A DNA stretch of 64,000 nucleotides from an uncultured Fibrobacter sp. (GTDB lineage Bacteria > Fibrobacterota > Fibrobacteria > Fibrobacterales > Fibrobacteraceae). The stretch's first letter is position 1. Each line of letters opens with the position of its first letter. This document shows positions 11,385 to 59,343 of this stretch, piece by piece. Under the pieces are notes generated by a model. That model saw only the letters and a program-made list of their open reading frames with translations. It was not told the origin of the DNA and made no database searches. The stretch lies in NCBI GenBank assembly GCA_946186895.1, contig CAMHOW010000007.1, positions 1-64,000 of the forward strand, read 5' to 3'. The translations under genes were made by a program, and so were the position numbers.

Positions 11385-11744
11385 TTATAACACGCGACGC
11401 GGATTGGGACCCCAGTCATCATCGCCCCTGTGGTTCCACTGGTTGGCGCCCTGGTCCAGGGCGACATTGAAACCGTCCCTGGGTCTAAAATGGTTCCATT
11501 CGTTAGCACCTTGGTCCAGAGCGACATTGAAACCGCCCCTAGGAATAAAATGGTTCCATTCGTTGGCGCCCTGGTCCAGAGCGATGCTTCCGCCCCGGAA
11601 GATGAAATTGTCAACATCCTGCTCCAAAGCAACGTTCTTGGAGGGATTGCCATCGGTAGCGTATATGATGGGGATGGCGTTTGCAACTCCGCCAAAACCT
11701 GCGATGCTAGCGACAAAAATGAATGATGCGATTGCGTGTTTCAT
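11385..11744 (-). CDS. small secreted protein with ~20-residue tandem repeats
   Basis: 119 residues; ATG at 11744 with AAGGAG 7 bp upstream. Signal peptide MKHAIASFIFVASIAGFGG...ANA. The mature part is almost wholly repeats of about 20 residues, consensus NVALDQGANEWNHFxPRGGF. The first copy is divergent (NVALEQDVDNFIFRGG), two are near-identical, and the last is truncated (NVALDQGANQWNHRGDDDW). No family is recognised. A secreted, basic/aromatic repeat of this kind could bind carbohydrate or the cell surface, but that is a guess. The DNA of copies 2-3 is nearly identical, so copy number may vary between strains. It lies next to the structured repeat array at 11952-12238. Confidence 0.75.
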   Translation of the reverse strand: MKHAIASFIFVASIAGFGGVANAIPIIYATDGNPSKNVALEQDVDNFIFRGGSIALDQGANEWNHFIPRGGFNVALDQGANEWNHFRPRDGFNVALDQGANQWNHRGDDDWGPNPRRVL

Positions 11745-11924
11745 GATAAACTCCTTTGTGTTTTGAATTCCTTGTTTCTTATGTCCATAATATACCTTCC
11801 GAAATTCATAAAGTCAAATACATAATTTCTTTGTTTTTGATAACAAATATTGATGAATACCGGCGAAAGGCTTGAAATTATGGCTGAGGAGTGACAGATG
11901 TGTGGTGATGGTATAAAAAAGAGA

Positions 11925-11950
11925 TTCCGGGTCAAGCCCGGAATGACAAC
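11925..11950. repeat. REP-like palindrome, TTCCGGGTCAAGCCCGGAA
   Basis: Perfect inverted repeat TTCCGGG-TCAAG-CCCGGAA followed by TGAC. The same element recurs at 44201-44246, 53219-53245 and 53281-53312, with variants at 23667-23690 and 44957-44984. Confidence 0.85.
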
Positions 11951-11951
11951 G

Positions 11952-12238
11952 GTGAGCAACAAAGCCCCTAGTATTAACTAGGGGTGGTTGCGAGAGAATC
12001 CGCATGCCGGAGAATCCATTCTAGGTTTTAGCGGATTCGGTCGTTATTGTGAGCAACAAAGCCCTGGTATTAACCAGGGGCGGTTGCGAGAGAATCCGCA
12101 TGCCGGAGAATCCATTCTAGGTTTTAGCGGATTCGGTCGTTATTGTGAGCAACAAAGCCCCTAGTATTAACTAGGGGCGGTTGCGAGAGAATCCGCATGC
12201 CGGAGAATCTATTCTAGGTTTTAGCGGATTCGGTCATT
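11952..12238. repeat. three tandem copies of a ~97-bp structured repeat
   Basis: Copies begin at 11952, 12049 and 12145 (97, 96 and ~94 bp). Each starts GTGAGCAACAAAGCCC, forms a first hairpin around loop ATTA, and a second fold in which GAATCCGC pairs with GCGGATTC and encloses AGAAT-CC-ATTCT. In copy 2 the first stem reads CCCTGG/CCAGGG where copies 1 and 3 read CCCCTAG/CTAGGGG, a compensatory A-T to G-C change. No open frame runs through all copies. It fills the 11745-12298 gap together with REP elements at 11925-11950 and 12241-12268; the remaining 11745-11920 is AT-rich and holds the promoter side of the small secreted-protein gene. Confidence 0.85.
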
Positions 12239-12240
12239 AA

Positions 12241-12268
12241 AAGATGGCGGCTCGGAGGCCGCCATGAC
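12241..12268. repeat. palindromic element ATGGCGGC...GCCGCCAT
   Basis: AAGATGGCGGCTCGGAGGC followed by CGCCATGAC forms an 8-bp stem. A near-identical element is at 23709-23738. Because it lies at the 3' side of the FISUMP gene (minus strand) it may also act as that gene's terminator. Confidence 0.7.
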
Positions 12269-12298: not shown

Positions 12299-13054
12299 CT
12301 ACGCGTTTTTTACGCAGCGTACGGACAAGGCATCGGAGCGGTAGACCCCTTCGATGTCCACGGAATTGTTGGTGATGCTCAGGCGGTAGGCATTGGACTT
12401 GCCGTATTCATCCTTGCACCAGAAACGGGCGCGCTTGCCGAAACGGCAGAAGGCGCCGTTGTTGAAGCGGTAGCCGGCGGGCAGGGCGAAGAACCCGAAG
12501 GAATCCTCGCCGGGATTGCCCCAGAAGCACTCGCTGCGCAGTTCGTCGCCGTTGGAATTCTTGGGCAGGTTCTCCAGGAGCTGTTCCCATTCCTTGTAGC
12601 TGGGGATATGCCAGCCATCGGGTGCGATTCCCTGGTAGTTGTCCTGACGGATGTTGTGGTACATTTCCAGGTCCTTGGCGGGGGACTGCTCGCTGAAATC
12701 GGCAGGGATGCCGAGAGCCGCTGTCCAGGTGTAGAGACGACCGTATTTCGCGATGTTGGTTTCGTCGTTACCCGGAGCGTAGCTTTCTTCTGTCTTGAAA
12801 CGCAGGTTGTCCACCATCCAAATCTGGTTGCCGATTTTTACGGTGCGGTAGGTTTCACCATCACGAGCATCGGTGAATGTTCCGTAGTTGAATTTCTTTG
12901 CATTCAGGGCTACGCATTTTTCGTAAGATATCAGGTTTTCCTTTTCGGAGGCTTCTTTCTTGGTAGCCTTGCTGACGGTAGCGCCGATACGGAAGGCCGC
13001 CACGATGACGACGACGAGGGCGATGACGTTGAATACGATAAAGGATGTTTCCAT
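12299..13054 (-). CDS. membrane-anchored FISUMP-domain protein
   Basis: 251 residues. An N-terminal membrane anchor (FIVFNVIALVVVIVAAFRIGA) is followed by a charged linker. Then comes the Fibrobacter succinogenes major paralogous domain at ~60-250: FTDARDGETYRTVKIGNQIW, MVDNLRF, YGRLYTWTAA, APDGWHIPSYKEWEQLL, FFALPAGYR and a final LSVRCVK. The domain is abundant in Fibrobacter and is thought to be extracytoplasmic; its biochemical role is unknown. ATG at 13054 with AAAGGAAAC upstream. It is followed by repeats and has no obvious operon partner. Confidence 0.9.
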   Translation of the reverse strand: METSFIVFNVIALVVVIVAAFRIGATVSKATKKEASEKENLISYEKCVALNAKKFNYGTFTDARDGETYRTVKIGNQIWMVDNLRFKTEESYAPGNDETNIAKYGRLYTWTAALGIPADFSEQSPAKDLEMYHNIRQDNYQGIAPDGWHIPSYKEWEQLLENLPKNSNGDELRSECFWGNPGEDSFGFFALPAGYRFNNGAFCRFGKRARFWCKDEYGKSNAYRLSITNNSVDIEGVYRSDALSVRCVKNA

Positions 13055-30045: not shown

Positions 30046-30242
30046 CCGTTTTTGCCCTGCAATCCCTATTCCCTGACCCCTAGATCCTAATCTCTTATTA
30101 TATATTTAGAGTCCCTAGATCTCGTTTGGCGGGCGGGCGGTACTTTCCGTCAAGAAACCGGCGGGGTTCGGAGGCGTTCCATACTTTTGGAAGGCCTTTT
30201 AGGGATTTGACTAATCGATTTTGCTTTACTTTTAGGAGTTTT

Positions 30243-57208: not shown

Positions 57209-58651
57209 TTAACTTACTTCCCAATAGCCTCCTTTATCGGGCCCAACGCGTTTTACAATGCCTTCGGCCTGTAGCTTTGCAATATTCTTTTCTACGGCTC
57301 TCGTTGTCACCCGTAGTGATTCCGCTATCATGGGTATGGTAATTTTAGGGTTTTCTTTCATCATTTCGATGATTTTCACCGAACTTTTCACCGAACTTTT
57401 CACCGAACTTTTCACCGAACTTTCCACCGAACCTTTCTGTGAACCATTGGGAACATCAGAGTCAACGCCCTCATTCAACTCAAACGGCATTACATTAATC
57501 CTGTTGAACGGAATCGTCACCACAATGAAATTCTTCTCGATCTTTATAGAATCTCGACCATACGCCCCGACAATCTTCGGCACACCGCGGCCTGATCGTT
57601 CACTTAGCCGCAACTGCAAGAACATTGAGGCAAGAATTTCGTTGACAGGGATACTCACGCCCTTGTAAAACCCTTCCAAATCCGGCTCAAGTCCGAGACC
57701 GCCATGCGAAAGTATCTCAATGCGGTCCGTGAAGACGCTTATCATGGGGGCATTCATGCCTAGCCACTTGTTATGAATAAACGCGTTCAATACCGCTTCA
57801 TGGAATGCCTCGTAGTCAAAAAGAGGAACATCCTTTCGTTCTGAAATGCGGCCTCGTTCATCCGCCTGGATTATATTGATGGCATCGCCGTATTCTAGAA
57901 TTTTATCCATCGCGTATAAGATGCAGGTGTTCCCGTATTCCTTGACCGAAAACAACGTATCAGCCTTGCTTTTGCCACTAAAAACAGACACACGAATTGG
58001 AATGTCATTCGCATCCGAAAGCAGCAGTGCCATGATATTGTAACGCCCGTCTGCAGTCAAGAGCTTGAGCGATTTCTTGAAAGTTTCCTTGCGGAGGGCA
58101 ACCCCTTTTGCCCCATAATACATGAACAGTTTTTCAAATGTCAGTTCCTGCGCATAATCGGGTGCGGCCATACTGACAATTGTCGGAATGCCGTTAGACA
58201 ACGTATTCAAAAGACGAATCTCCCATTCAGGGAACTTAGAGAGCTTTTCCTTGCTTGAACCGATTCGGATAAAAGCCTGCGACAGGAACTTCGTCGGGAC
58301 TGATTTCGCGGCGGGAACAGACAATAAAACAAGGCGTTTGTCGTCAATCTGAACCTCTTCGACCTCAAAAGCAACGCTTGGCTTTAAATTCCGGGCGAGA
58401 TAATGCTTGTAGGGTTCGTGATCAACGTCCTTGTCGAAGTTTACAGTTGTGCCTATGATTTCGTGGGTTGAATTATGGATTCCCCACACGATATAGCCAA
58501 ATTCCCGGCCACACAAGGCCGCCCCGTTTGAAATCGCCGAAATATACTCGCCAATTTCGTCTTTTGAAAACCAACTTTCCTTAAAGTCTAGCCACTCATA
58601 TTCATGCGGAATGGCCACTAGGTTCTTTATAAGATCTTCTGATTTTGCCAT
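57209..58651 (-). CDS. AlbA_2/Schlafen-like + HATPase_c_4 regulator with tetrapeptide-repeat linker and C-terminal HTH
   Basis: 480 residues from ATG 58651, which has GGAGG 11 bp upstream; the ATG at 58669 lacks a site. N-terminus HEYEWLDFKESWFSKDEIGEYISAISNGAAL is the AlbA_2 putative DNA-binding/Schlafen-like domain. The middle (~270-400: FDYEAFHEAVLNAFIHNKWLG, FTDRIEILSHGGLGLEPDLEG, SERSGRGVPKIV) is the HATPase_c_4 fold. Then comes SVESSVK followed by repeats of SSVK, coded by five 12-bp units (57373-57432), and a C-terminal winged helix (NPKITIPMIAESLRVTTRAVEKNIAKLQAEG). Often linked to mobile or defence regions. Adjacent to the repeat remnants at 58920-59245. Confidence 0.85.
   Translation of the reverse strand: MAKSEDLIKNLVAIPHEYEWLDFKESWFSKDEIGEYISAISNGAALCGREFGYIVWGIHNSTHEIIGTTVNFDKDVDHEPYKHYLARNLKPSVAFEVEEVQIDDKRLVLLSVPAAKSVPTKFLSQAFIRIGSSKEKLSKFPEWEIRLLNTLSNGIPTIVSMAAPDYAQELTFEKLFMYYGAKGVALRKETFKKSLKLLTADGRYNIMALLLSDANDIPIRVSVFSGKSKADTLFSVKEYGNTCILYAMDKILEYGDAINIIQADERGRISERKDVPLFDYEAFHEAVLNAFIHNKWLGMNAPMISVFTDRIEILSHGGLGLEPDLEGFYKGVSIPVNEILASMFLQLRLSERSGRGVPKIVGAYGRDSIKIEKNFIVVTIPFNRINVMPFELNEGVDSDVPNGSQKGSVESSVKSSVKSSVKSSVKIIEMMKENPKITIPMIAESLRVTTRAVEKNIAKLQAEGIVKRVGPDKGGYWEVS
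57373..57432. repeat. five tandem 12-bp units (TTCACCGAACTT) inside the AlbA_2 gene
   Basis: CACCGAAC begins at 57377, 57389, 57401, 57413 and 57425. On the coding strand the unit reads Ser-Ser-Val-Lys. Copy-number changes would stay in frame. Confidence 0.9.
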
Positions 58652-58920: not shown

Positions 58921-59245
58921 TTATCCTCTCACTTATCCTATCGTTTAACCTATCACCCAATCTTTAACCCAACTTATTGCCCAACTCATCACCCAACCGC
59001 CATCATTCTTTATTGGACATTTTATTGGACAATGTATTGGACATTTCTGCAAGATTTCAGATTGGGGCAACACAGCTGCCCCAATTTATGGCTGATATTG
59101 TGCCATTTATTGTGTCGTTTATTGTGTCATACGTTGGGAACATTTGGGCCATTTTTTAGGCCTCTTTTCTATTTCACCGAACTTTTCCCCGAACCATTGA
59201 GAACGTCCAAGATTTGACCACCTATTTGACCACCCACTTGACCAC
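58921..59245. repeat. cluster of four unrelated 12-bp-period repeat arrays, probable gene remnants
   Basis: Arrays at 58921-58992 (six units such as CCAACTCATCAC), 59010-59046 (TTGGACATTTTA), 59106-59126 (TTTATTGTGTCG) and 59214-59246 (TTGACCACCTAT). On the minus strand they read tetrapeptides such as LGDR, LGNK, MSNK, TIND and GGQ[VI]. At 59174-59212 the minus frame reads DVLNGSGKSSVK then stop, homologous to DVPNGSQKGSVESSVK of the AlbA_2 gene at 57209-58651. Open frames crossing them are broken. This fills most of the 58652-59343 gap; 59250-59343 carries an AAGGAG ribosome site for the next gene. Confidence 0.75.
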
Positions 59246-59343
59246 CTGCTACAGTATCATCGACCCCCAAAAGCAGCTCTACTTTACCGACGATGTCGGA
59301 ATAAAAGTGTATATTAGAATCCATACGCTAAGGAGATTCCGCC

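What the first reader, a model, noticed from the sequence alone, without database searches (positions are those of the whole stretch)
11952..12238. Three tandem ~97-bp units with compensatory hairpin changes
Copies keep two fold elements. In copy 2 the stem of the first hairpin has changed on both sides (CTAG to TGG type), keeping pairing, so the secondary structure is under selection or copied as a unit. No frame is shared. The array lies between the 20-residue-repeat secreted protein and the FISUMP gene. It could be an RNA element, a protein-binding array or a REP-type mobile cluster.
Basis: seen in the sequence. Interest (0 to 1): 0.6.

Follow-up and report, generated by a model that had tools for sequence, protein, structure and literature searches.

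The report
Fibrobacter's paired-hairpin gene-end repeats
The three repeats belong to a large family of short, two-hairpin DNA elements scattered through Fibrobacter genomes, mostly just behind the ends of genes; their shape is kept while their letters change, and they come and go between related species.

Summary
Three direct units (11952-12042, 12049-12138, 12145-12235) with identical 6-nt linkers each fold into two hairpins. They are one locus of a family: a covariance model built from 16 units of this genome finds 34-35 matches in it, and 1,380 matches in 60 of 61 Fibrobacter genomes. In the phylum it occurs in 84 of 167 genomes, in 3 of 40 genera, all of one family. No Rfam family matches the array.

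The structure is real: 20-22 of 24 pairs show changes on both sides, against zero of 500 shuffles. Tandem G.A pairs, loops and junction letters are also kept. G.U/A.C counts and folding energies favour the + strand.

In one near-complete genome the CGGTC end faces an antisense gene in 35 of 40 arrays, its stop codon within -3 to +10 nt in 16 of 35. At the malate dehydrogenase end the element is present in 15 of 30 genomes (at least 7 changes), once with a clean 6-bp duplication.

Best reading: mosaic, slowly mobile, extragenic structured repeats, like REP/BIME elements in behaviour but without their tags, dedicated transposase or orientation pattern. The mobilising enzyme and any host function are unknown. 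I found no description in the papers searched.

The parts
11952..12042 (+). unit 1 (GTGAGC...CGGTC, 91 nt)
   Evidence: R1 match, 101.4 bits
11956..11991 (+). unit 1 hairpin 1: GCAAC/GTTGC outer stem, AAA / G internal loop, GCCCCTAGT/ACTAGGGGT inner stem, AUUA loop
   Evidence: fold; covariation
11996..12038 (+). unit 1 hairpin 2: GAATCCGC/GCGGATTC stem, conserved CCNNAGA and TTTAGC inside
   Evidence: fold; covariation
12043..12048 (+). linker GTTATT
12049..12138 (+). unit 2 (90 nt), hairpin 1 with one compensatory pair change and one base shorter
   Evidence: R1 match, 94.5 bits
12053..12087 (+). unit 2 hairpin 1
   Evidence: fold
12092..12134 (+). unit 2 hairpin 2
   Evidence: fold
12139..12144 (+). 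linker GTTATT, identical to the first
12145..12235 (+). unit 3 (91 nt)
   Evidence: R1 match, 102.7 bits
12149..12184 (+). unit 3 hairpin 1
   Evidence: fold
12189..12231 (+). unit 3 hairpin 2
   Evidence: fold
11924..11944 (.). flanking palindrome ATTCCGGGTCAAGCCCGGAAT followed by GACA; a different dispersed hairpin seen beside many copies, not part of the unit
   Evidence: fold; similar sequences
12244..12265 (.). flanking palindrome ATGGCGGCTCGGAGGCCGCCAT followed by GACA, between the array and the FISUMP stop codon
   Evidence: fold
12299..13054 (-). FISUMP-domain gene facing the CGGTC end of the array (its stop lies 63 nt away)
   Evidence: TIGR02145
11385..11744 (-). 119-aa ORF on the other side of the array, no NCBIfam match

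Best explanation
The array is one locus of a genus-wide family of mosaic, extragenic, structured repeats. Each ~90-nt unit carries two hairpins with conserved feet (GTGAGC/GCGAG; for hairpin 2 mostly a foot with a tandem G.A pair), conserved loops and nearly constant length. Units are gained and lost as DNA at gene ends, most often directly behind the stop codon of the gene on the opposite strand, and pile up in direct arrays. Shown: dispersion, structure with covariation, preference for the + strand, fixed orientation towards gene ends, patchiness, and flanking direct repeats. Inferred: that the + strand hairpins are read as single-stranded DNA by an unidentified enzyme that copies or inserts the unit, which is why the fold is kept while its letters drift, and that cis effects on the neighbouring mRNA are secondary.
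For: Copies: 15 blastn matches in the own genome, 34-35 with the model, 1,380 matches in 60 of 61 genus genomes, none in 83 of 167 genomes of the phylum. Covariation: (0 of 500 shuffles each for the covariation score; slid partners collapse). + strand: 96 G.U against 28 A.C stem cells over alignments A3 and A4 together, A3 alone 27:15; + folds better in 77 of 120 units with RNA and 99 of 120 with DNA parameters. Position: in G048 the CGGTC side faces an antisense gene in 35 of 40 arrays, stop within -3..+10 nt in 16 of 35, against 1 of 20 on the GTGAGC side; arrays antisense to both neighbours 15, sense to both 3. Gain and loss: at mdh 15 of 30 genomes filled, at least 7 changes forced by supported branches; TTACGT on both sides of the insert in G048 and once in the empty G075. 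Flanking repeats: sequence before GTGAGC repeats the element's own 3' end plus flank, up to 16-19 bp, total 288 against 213.8 for permuted pairs, 0 of 2000. Mosaicism: hairpin 1 types swapped at the same site; a third hairpin module spliced in at GCGA/GAG.
Against: No mobilising gene was found; Y1 transposases are absent from 41 of 61 genomes and unrelated to copy number. Near-identical dispersed copies are rare (a pair above 0.93 identity in 2 of 14 genomes with such pairs), so recent transposition is scarce. A clean insertion duplication was seen at one gene end only; the second mdh pair (G009/G045) carries an older remnant in its flank, and other filled/empty pairs were not clean. Recombination between species or between flanking repeats could also make the pattern patchy. 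Conservation of loop letters would also follow from a host function.
Confidence: 0.5

Rival explanations
1. Host-useful 3'-UTR element: the unit is kept because the transcript of the facing gene carries a strong double hairpin a few nt after its stop codon, which slows the ribosome or blocks 3' exonucleases, as reported for E. coli REPs near stop codons.
For: Docking at stop codons of core genes: mdh, efp, trpS, leuB, pta, metK, gdhA and a methylmalonyl-CoA decarboxylase alpha-like carboxyltransferase; in several loci it lies between stop and a terminator-like hairpin (read by eye). E. coli REPs within 15 nt of a stop codon are discussed as stalling ribosomes (PMC12306157, passages).
Against: In that transcript the folded strand is the - strand, whereas G.U/A.C counts and energies favour +. 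Presence is patchy between close relatives.
Confidence: 0.2
2. A structured + strand RNA (small RNA or antisense to gene 3' ends) expressed from the units.
For: Purine-rich conserved internal loops, tandem G.A pairs swapped for A-U/U-A, + strand preference.
Against: The upstream gene is sense in 19 and antisense in 16 of the G048 arrays with a called upstream gene (intragenic array left out), so there is no constant source of + transcription; terminator-like hairpins often precede the unit (by eye); no conserved promoter-like flank among the junctions read (by eye).
Confidence: 0.13
3. Neutral palindrome maintenance: template switching inside hairpins copies one arm onto the other, giving double changes without selection, and slippage between flanking repeats makes the arrays.
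For: Few G.U intermediates (96 of 4,244 stem cells over A3 and A4); flanking direct repeats and shared linkers.
Against: Arm copying would erase the tandem G.A pair, kept in 78-79 of 107 units, and does not explain conserved loops, junction letters and the narrow length range of 88-94 nt.
Confidence: 0.12
4. A strict REP/BIME family moved by a RAYT (Y1) transposase.
For: Extragenic, palindromic, high copy, mosaic, stop-proximal.
Against: No Y1_Tnp match in 41 of 61 genomes, including the window's genome and genomes with 52-68 copies; no GTAG tag; direct orientation.
Confidence: 0.05

Closest known systems
REP / BIME (repetitive extragenic palindromes, RAYT-associated)
   Same: Extragenic, short palindromes, tens of copies per genome, mosaic clusters, often beside stop codons.
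   Different: Two different hairpins per ~90-nt unit, direct orientation, no GTAG tag, no RAYT in most genomes, unit feet GTGAGC/GCGAG and CGGTC end.
CGTC-tagged palindromic repeats (Di Nocera et al. 2013, PMC3733652, passages read)
   Same: Palindromic families reported without a dedicated transposase; present in several phyla.
   Different: Those are small single hairpins with an unpaired CGTC tag and mostly CCA-like tail; this unit ends in CGGTC and has two hairpins. Fibrobacter is not named in that text.
MITEs
   Same: Small non-coding mobile DNA; one site with a 6-bp duplication; short imperfect inverted ends by eye ((A)CCGTGAGC / GCGAACGG(T)).
   Different: No parent transposon found; inside is under structural constraint; duplication not general.
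Integron attC arrays
   Same: Variable stems with kept boxes, strand preference, direct arrays with flanking repeats.
   Different: No cassette genes between units, no integron integrase above cut-off in 61 genomes, no GTTRRRY box by eye (motif recalled).
Rfam RF02983 Fibrobacter-1 RNA
   Same: Structured, found in the same window.
   Different: No match to the array at gathering or permissive threshold.

Membership tests
REP/BIME | extragenic palindrome in many copies | tested here: met
   (42 of 43 G048 arrays not called intragenic)
REP/BIME | unpaired GTAG (or CGTC) tag at one end of the hairpin | tested here: not met
   units begin GTGAGC and end CGGTC in nearly all junctions printed (read by eye)
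REP/BIME | RAYT/Y1 transposase in the genome | tested here: not met
   PF01797 in 20 of 61 genomes, not in the window's own; copy number medians 16.5 with, 18 without, p 0.73
REP/BIME | alternating orientation of units in clusters | tested here: not met
   the 36 distinct arrays are same-strand by the way arrays were formed; opposite-strand neighbours under about 400 nt were seen in L261 only among the 39 G048 loci
MITE | target site duplication | tested here: inconclusive
   TTACGT at mdh in G048 against empty G075; no second clean pair
MITE | terminal inverted repeats shared with an autonomous transposon | tested here: inconclusive
   short imperfect inverted ends by eye; no search for a parent element was made
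Integron attC array | integron integrase in the genome | tested here: not met
   TIGR02249: 0 of 61 genomes over cut-off
Integron attC array | gene cassettes between sites | tested here: not met
   linkers are 1-8 nt
Rfam RNA family | match at gathering score | tested here: not met
   window; 12 loci: only a tRNA
Expressed structured RNA | transcript | not testable with these tools
   no RNA-seq at hand
Stop-proximal translation-modulating REP | hairpin within about 15 nt of a stop codon | tested here: met
   16 of 35 antisense-facing arrays of G048 have the stop within -3..+10 nt; the window's own array lies 63 nt away
Stop-proximal translation-modulating REP | effect on expression | not testable with these tools
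   needs a bench test

The most novel reading that the evidence does not exclude
A new class of miniature mobile element moved by recognition of a strand-specific double hairpin in single-stranded DNA, using its own 3' end (GCGAACGGTC plus a few nt) as attachment half-site at gene stop codons, so that loci switch between 0, 1, 2, 3 or more units with n+1 half-sites: integron-like logic without cassettes, integrase of the integron type, or Y1 transposase.
Probability: 0.25. Interest if true: 0.82.

Novelty: new variant of a known kind. Interest (0 to 1): 0.6.

Why it matters
It adds a large structured-repeat family to a phylum where my searches found none described, with unusually clear covariation between copies of one genome. 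It gives a natural experiment: the same core genes with and without a hairpin pair directly behind the stop codon in close relatives, which can separate effects on 3' ends from selfish spread. If the + strand DNA fold is what is recognised, it points to an unknown mobilising enzyme.

Tried and rejected
Protein-coding repeat: spacing of 97 and 96 nt does not hold a frame and copies elsewhere lie between genes. Known RNA: no Rfam match. Intrinsic terminator: no T run after the hairpins, and terminator-like hairpins sit separately beside the units (by eye). Viral origin: three partial pattern matches in viral contigs did not match the model. RAYT-driven REP. Integron. Recent transposon burst.

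Results that led nowhere or need care: most flank pairs were other copies, not empty sites; the window against L125 showed an array of three absent here beside pta, but the spacer DNA is unrelated, so no junction could be read. The automatic labels for efp and pccB are partly wrong (G064 efp labelled full and G065, G021 labelled remnant; G000 pccB labelled remnant although L011:38-127 is a unit), so only the mdh labels, which agree with the sequences, are used. The second G.U/A.C line printed is cumulative over A3 and A4; I give it as such; the two alignments share some elements. Linker tests include orthologous arrays, and local tandem duplication would also give matching linkers. Gene calls come from my own ORF scoring. 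The set L058-L137 was chosen by an exact pattern, so its context counts are biased; G048 was used instead.

Full report
What is there. The window lies on contig C7 of an 88%-complete genome of the Fibrobacter group (relatives with the element are titled Fibrobacter). Between a FISUMP gene and a small ORF, both on the - strand, three direct units of 91, 90 and 91 nt are separated by the same linker GTTATT. Each unit folds on the + strand into two hairpins and beats all 200 shuffles.

A family, not a lone array. blastn finds 15 matches in the own genome. Sixteen units of this genome gave alignment A2 and model R1. R1 finds 35 matches at E up to 1 in the own genome, 28 of them below 1e-5. In 61 genus genomes it finds 1,380 matches at E up to 0.01, in 60 of 61; the exception is 70% complete. 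In the phylum scan 84 of 167 genomes match, from 3 of 40 genera, all of one family; one near-complete genome of the genus (G144) has none. A pattern scan of GTDB contigs gave 89 stretches; the 80 listed are all titled Fibrobacter. Three viral contigs with a partial pattern do not match R1.

The structure is constrained. In A2, 15 of 24 pairs have changes on both sides and 96.3% of cells pair; RNAalifold on its own gives 14 of 22. With 75 matches from 48 sources it is 22 of 24, and with 124 matches from L058-L137 20 of 24. No shuffle of 500 reaches the observed covariation score in any set, and sliding partners by one to three columns destroys the signal; alignments A3 and A4 were fitted to the model, A2 was not. 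Kept outside the pairs are GTGAGC, AA(A), the AUUA loop, GCGAGAG, CCNNAGA, TTTAGC and CGGTC. Inside stem 2 a tandem G.A/A.G pair stands in 78-79 of 107 units and is replaced mostly by A-U/U-A. The length stays within 88-94 nt in the 16 units.

Which strand. G.U outnumbers A.C in the stems: 27 to 15 in A3, 96 to 28 over A3 and A4 together, nearly half of the G.U at one basal pair. The + strand folds more stably in 77 of 120 units with RNA and 99 of 120 with DNA parameters. A cruciform role, using both strands alike, would not predict this asymmetry.

Where it sits. G048 (20 contigs, 100% complete) has 49 matches in 43 arrays. On the CGGTC side a gene was called for 40 arrays and is antisense in 35; its stop lies -3 to +10 nt from the unit end in 16 of 35. 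On the GTGAGC side a sense stop lies that close in 1 of 20. Arrays antisense to both neighbours number 15, sense to both 3; none lies between divergent genes where both genes were called. The facing genes include core genes: malate dehydrogenase, EF-P, TrpS, LeuB, Pta, MetK, GdhA and a carboxyltransferase.

Gain and loss. Thirty mdh loci, the best of 50 genomes with a hit at E up to 1e-80 out of 61, were fetched. Fifteen carry a unit directly behind the mdh stop codon and 15 do not; the mdh tree needs 8 changes, at least 7 on supported branches. G048 and the empty G075 share the flank up to the stop codon, and TTACGT stands on both sides of the insert and once in the empty site. G009 against G045 looks alike, but G045 keeps a piece resembling an older 3' end, and elsewhere lone 3' ends are found behind efp, so loss is common too. 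In 38 G048 arrays (five with a span of 80 nt or less were left out) the sequence just before GTGAGC repeats the unit's own 3' end and flank more than permuted pairs do (288 against 213.8, 0 of 2000). In 36 distinct arrays of two or more units the last linker matches the right flank (62 against 19.9, 0 of 5000) and adjacent linkers are equal in 7 of 11 cases. This can come from target duplication, from slippage, or both. Dispersed copies within a genome have median identities of 0.72-0.82, and a pair above 0.93 in 2 of 14 genomes: spread is slow.

Mosaic build. Hairpin 1 types are exchanged at the same site between species while hairpin 2 stays, as behind the fructose-bisphosphate aldolase-like gene in L014 and L107 (gene named from its sequence by recall). 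A third hairpin module, containing GGCCACCTTTAGGTGG, sits between GCGA and GAG in several units and also occurs apart from them (13 pattern matches in the loci held).

How it most likely works. A mobile or once-mobile DNA element whose single-stranded + fold is recognised explains the kept fold, the strand preference against the direction of the facing gene, the flanking repeats and the patchiness. The recognising enzyme is inferred only. A role in the facing mRNA is less likely because the favoured fold is on the other strand. A + transcript lacks a constant source. Arm-copying mutation may add to the covariation but does not explain the G.A pairs and loops.

Against what is known. The behaviour resembles REP/BIME elements. 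Membership fails on tag, transposase and orientation. The integron comparison fails on integrase and cassettes. CGTC repeats (PMC3733652, passages) and E. coli REPs near stop codons (PMC12306157, passages) are the nearest published parallels seen; neither text names Fibrobacter. The S85 genome paper (PMC3079729, passages) mentions no such repeats in its main text at the terms searched; its supplement on insertion sequences was not readable here. Searches for a description were (listings). The claim of novelty rests on these and on Rfam only.

Noticed in passing
window 30103-30204 (+): Rfam RF02983 Fibrobacter-1 RNA, 105 bits. It lies just upstream of an ATG at about 30243 whose product reads like the start of an RNase E/G protein (by eye, recall), so this RNA may be a leader of that gene.
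   Followed up: no
window 11924-11944 and 12244-12265; many other loci: A second, shorter dispersed hairpin ending in GACA (ATTCCGGGTCAAGCCCGGAAT and variants) flanks this array and stands beside many units in other genomes.
   Followed up: partly
L010:3801, L017, L139, L188, L199, L215, L220; alone in L156, L157, L161: A third hairpin module with GGCCACCTTTAGGTGG and a variable stem is spliced between hairpin 1 and hairpin 2, and also occurs without them.
   Followed up: partly
L165 (G062), behind mdh: A unit whose hairpin 1 loop holds an insert of about 100 nt while the stem arms are intact.
   Followed up: no
window 11431-11584: 60-bp tandem repeat inside the 119-aa ORF, 86% matches.
   Followed up: no
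window 57373-57437, 59009-59046, 59096-59130, 59212-59247: Several short arrays with a 12-bp period and different consensus units.
   Followed up: no
L106, L129, L011 against L117, L063: Behind a gene with a lysine-rich C-terminus the unit's CGGTC end overlaps the coding sequence, so the last residues and the stop codon appear to come from the element.
   Followed up: partly
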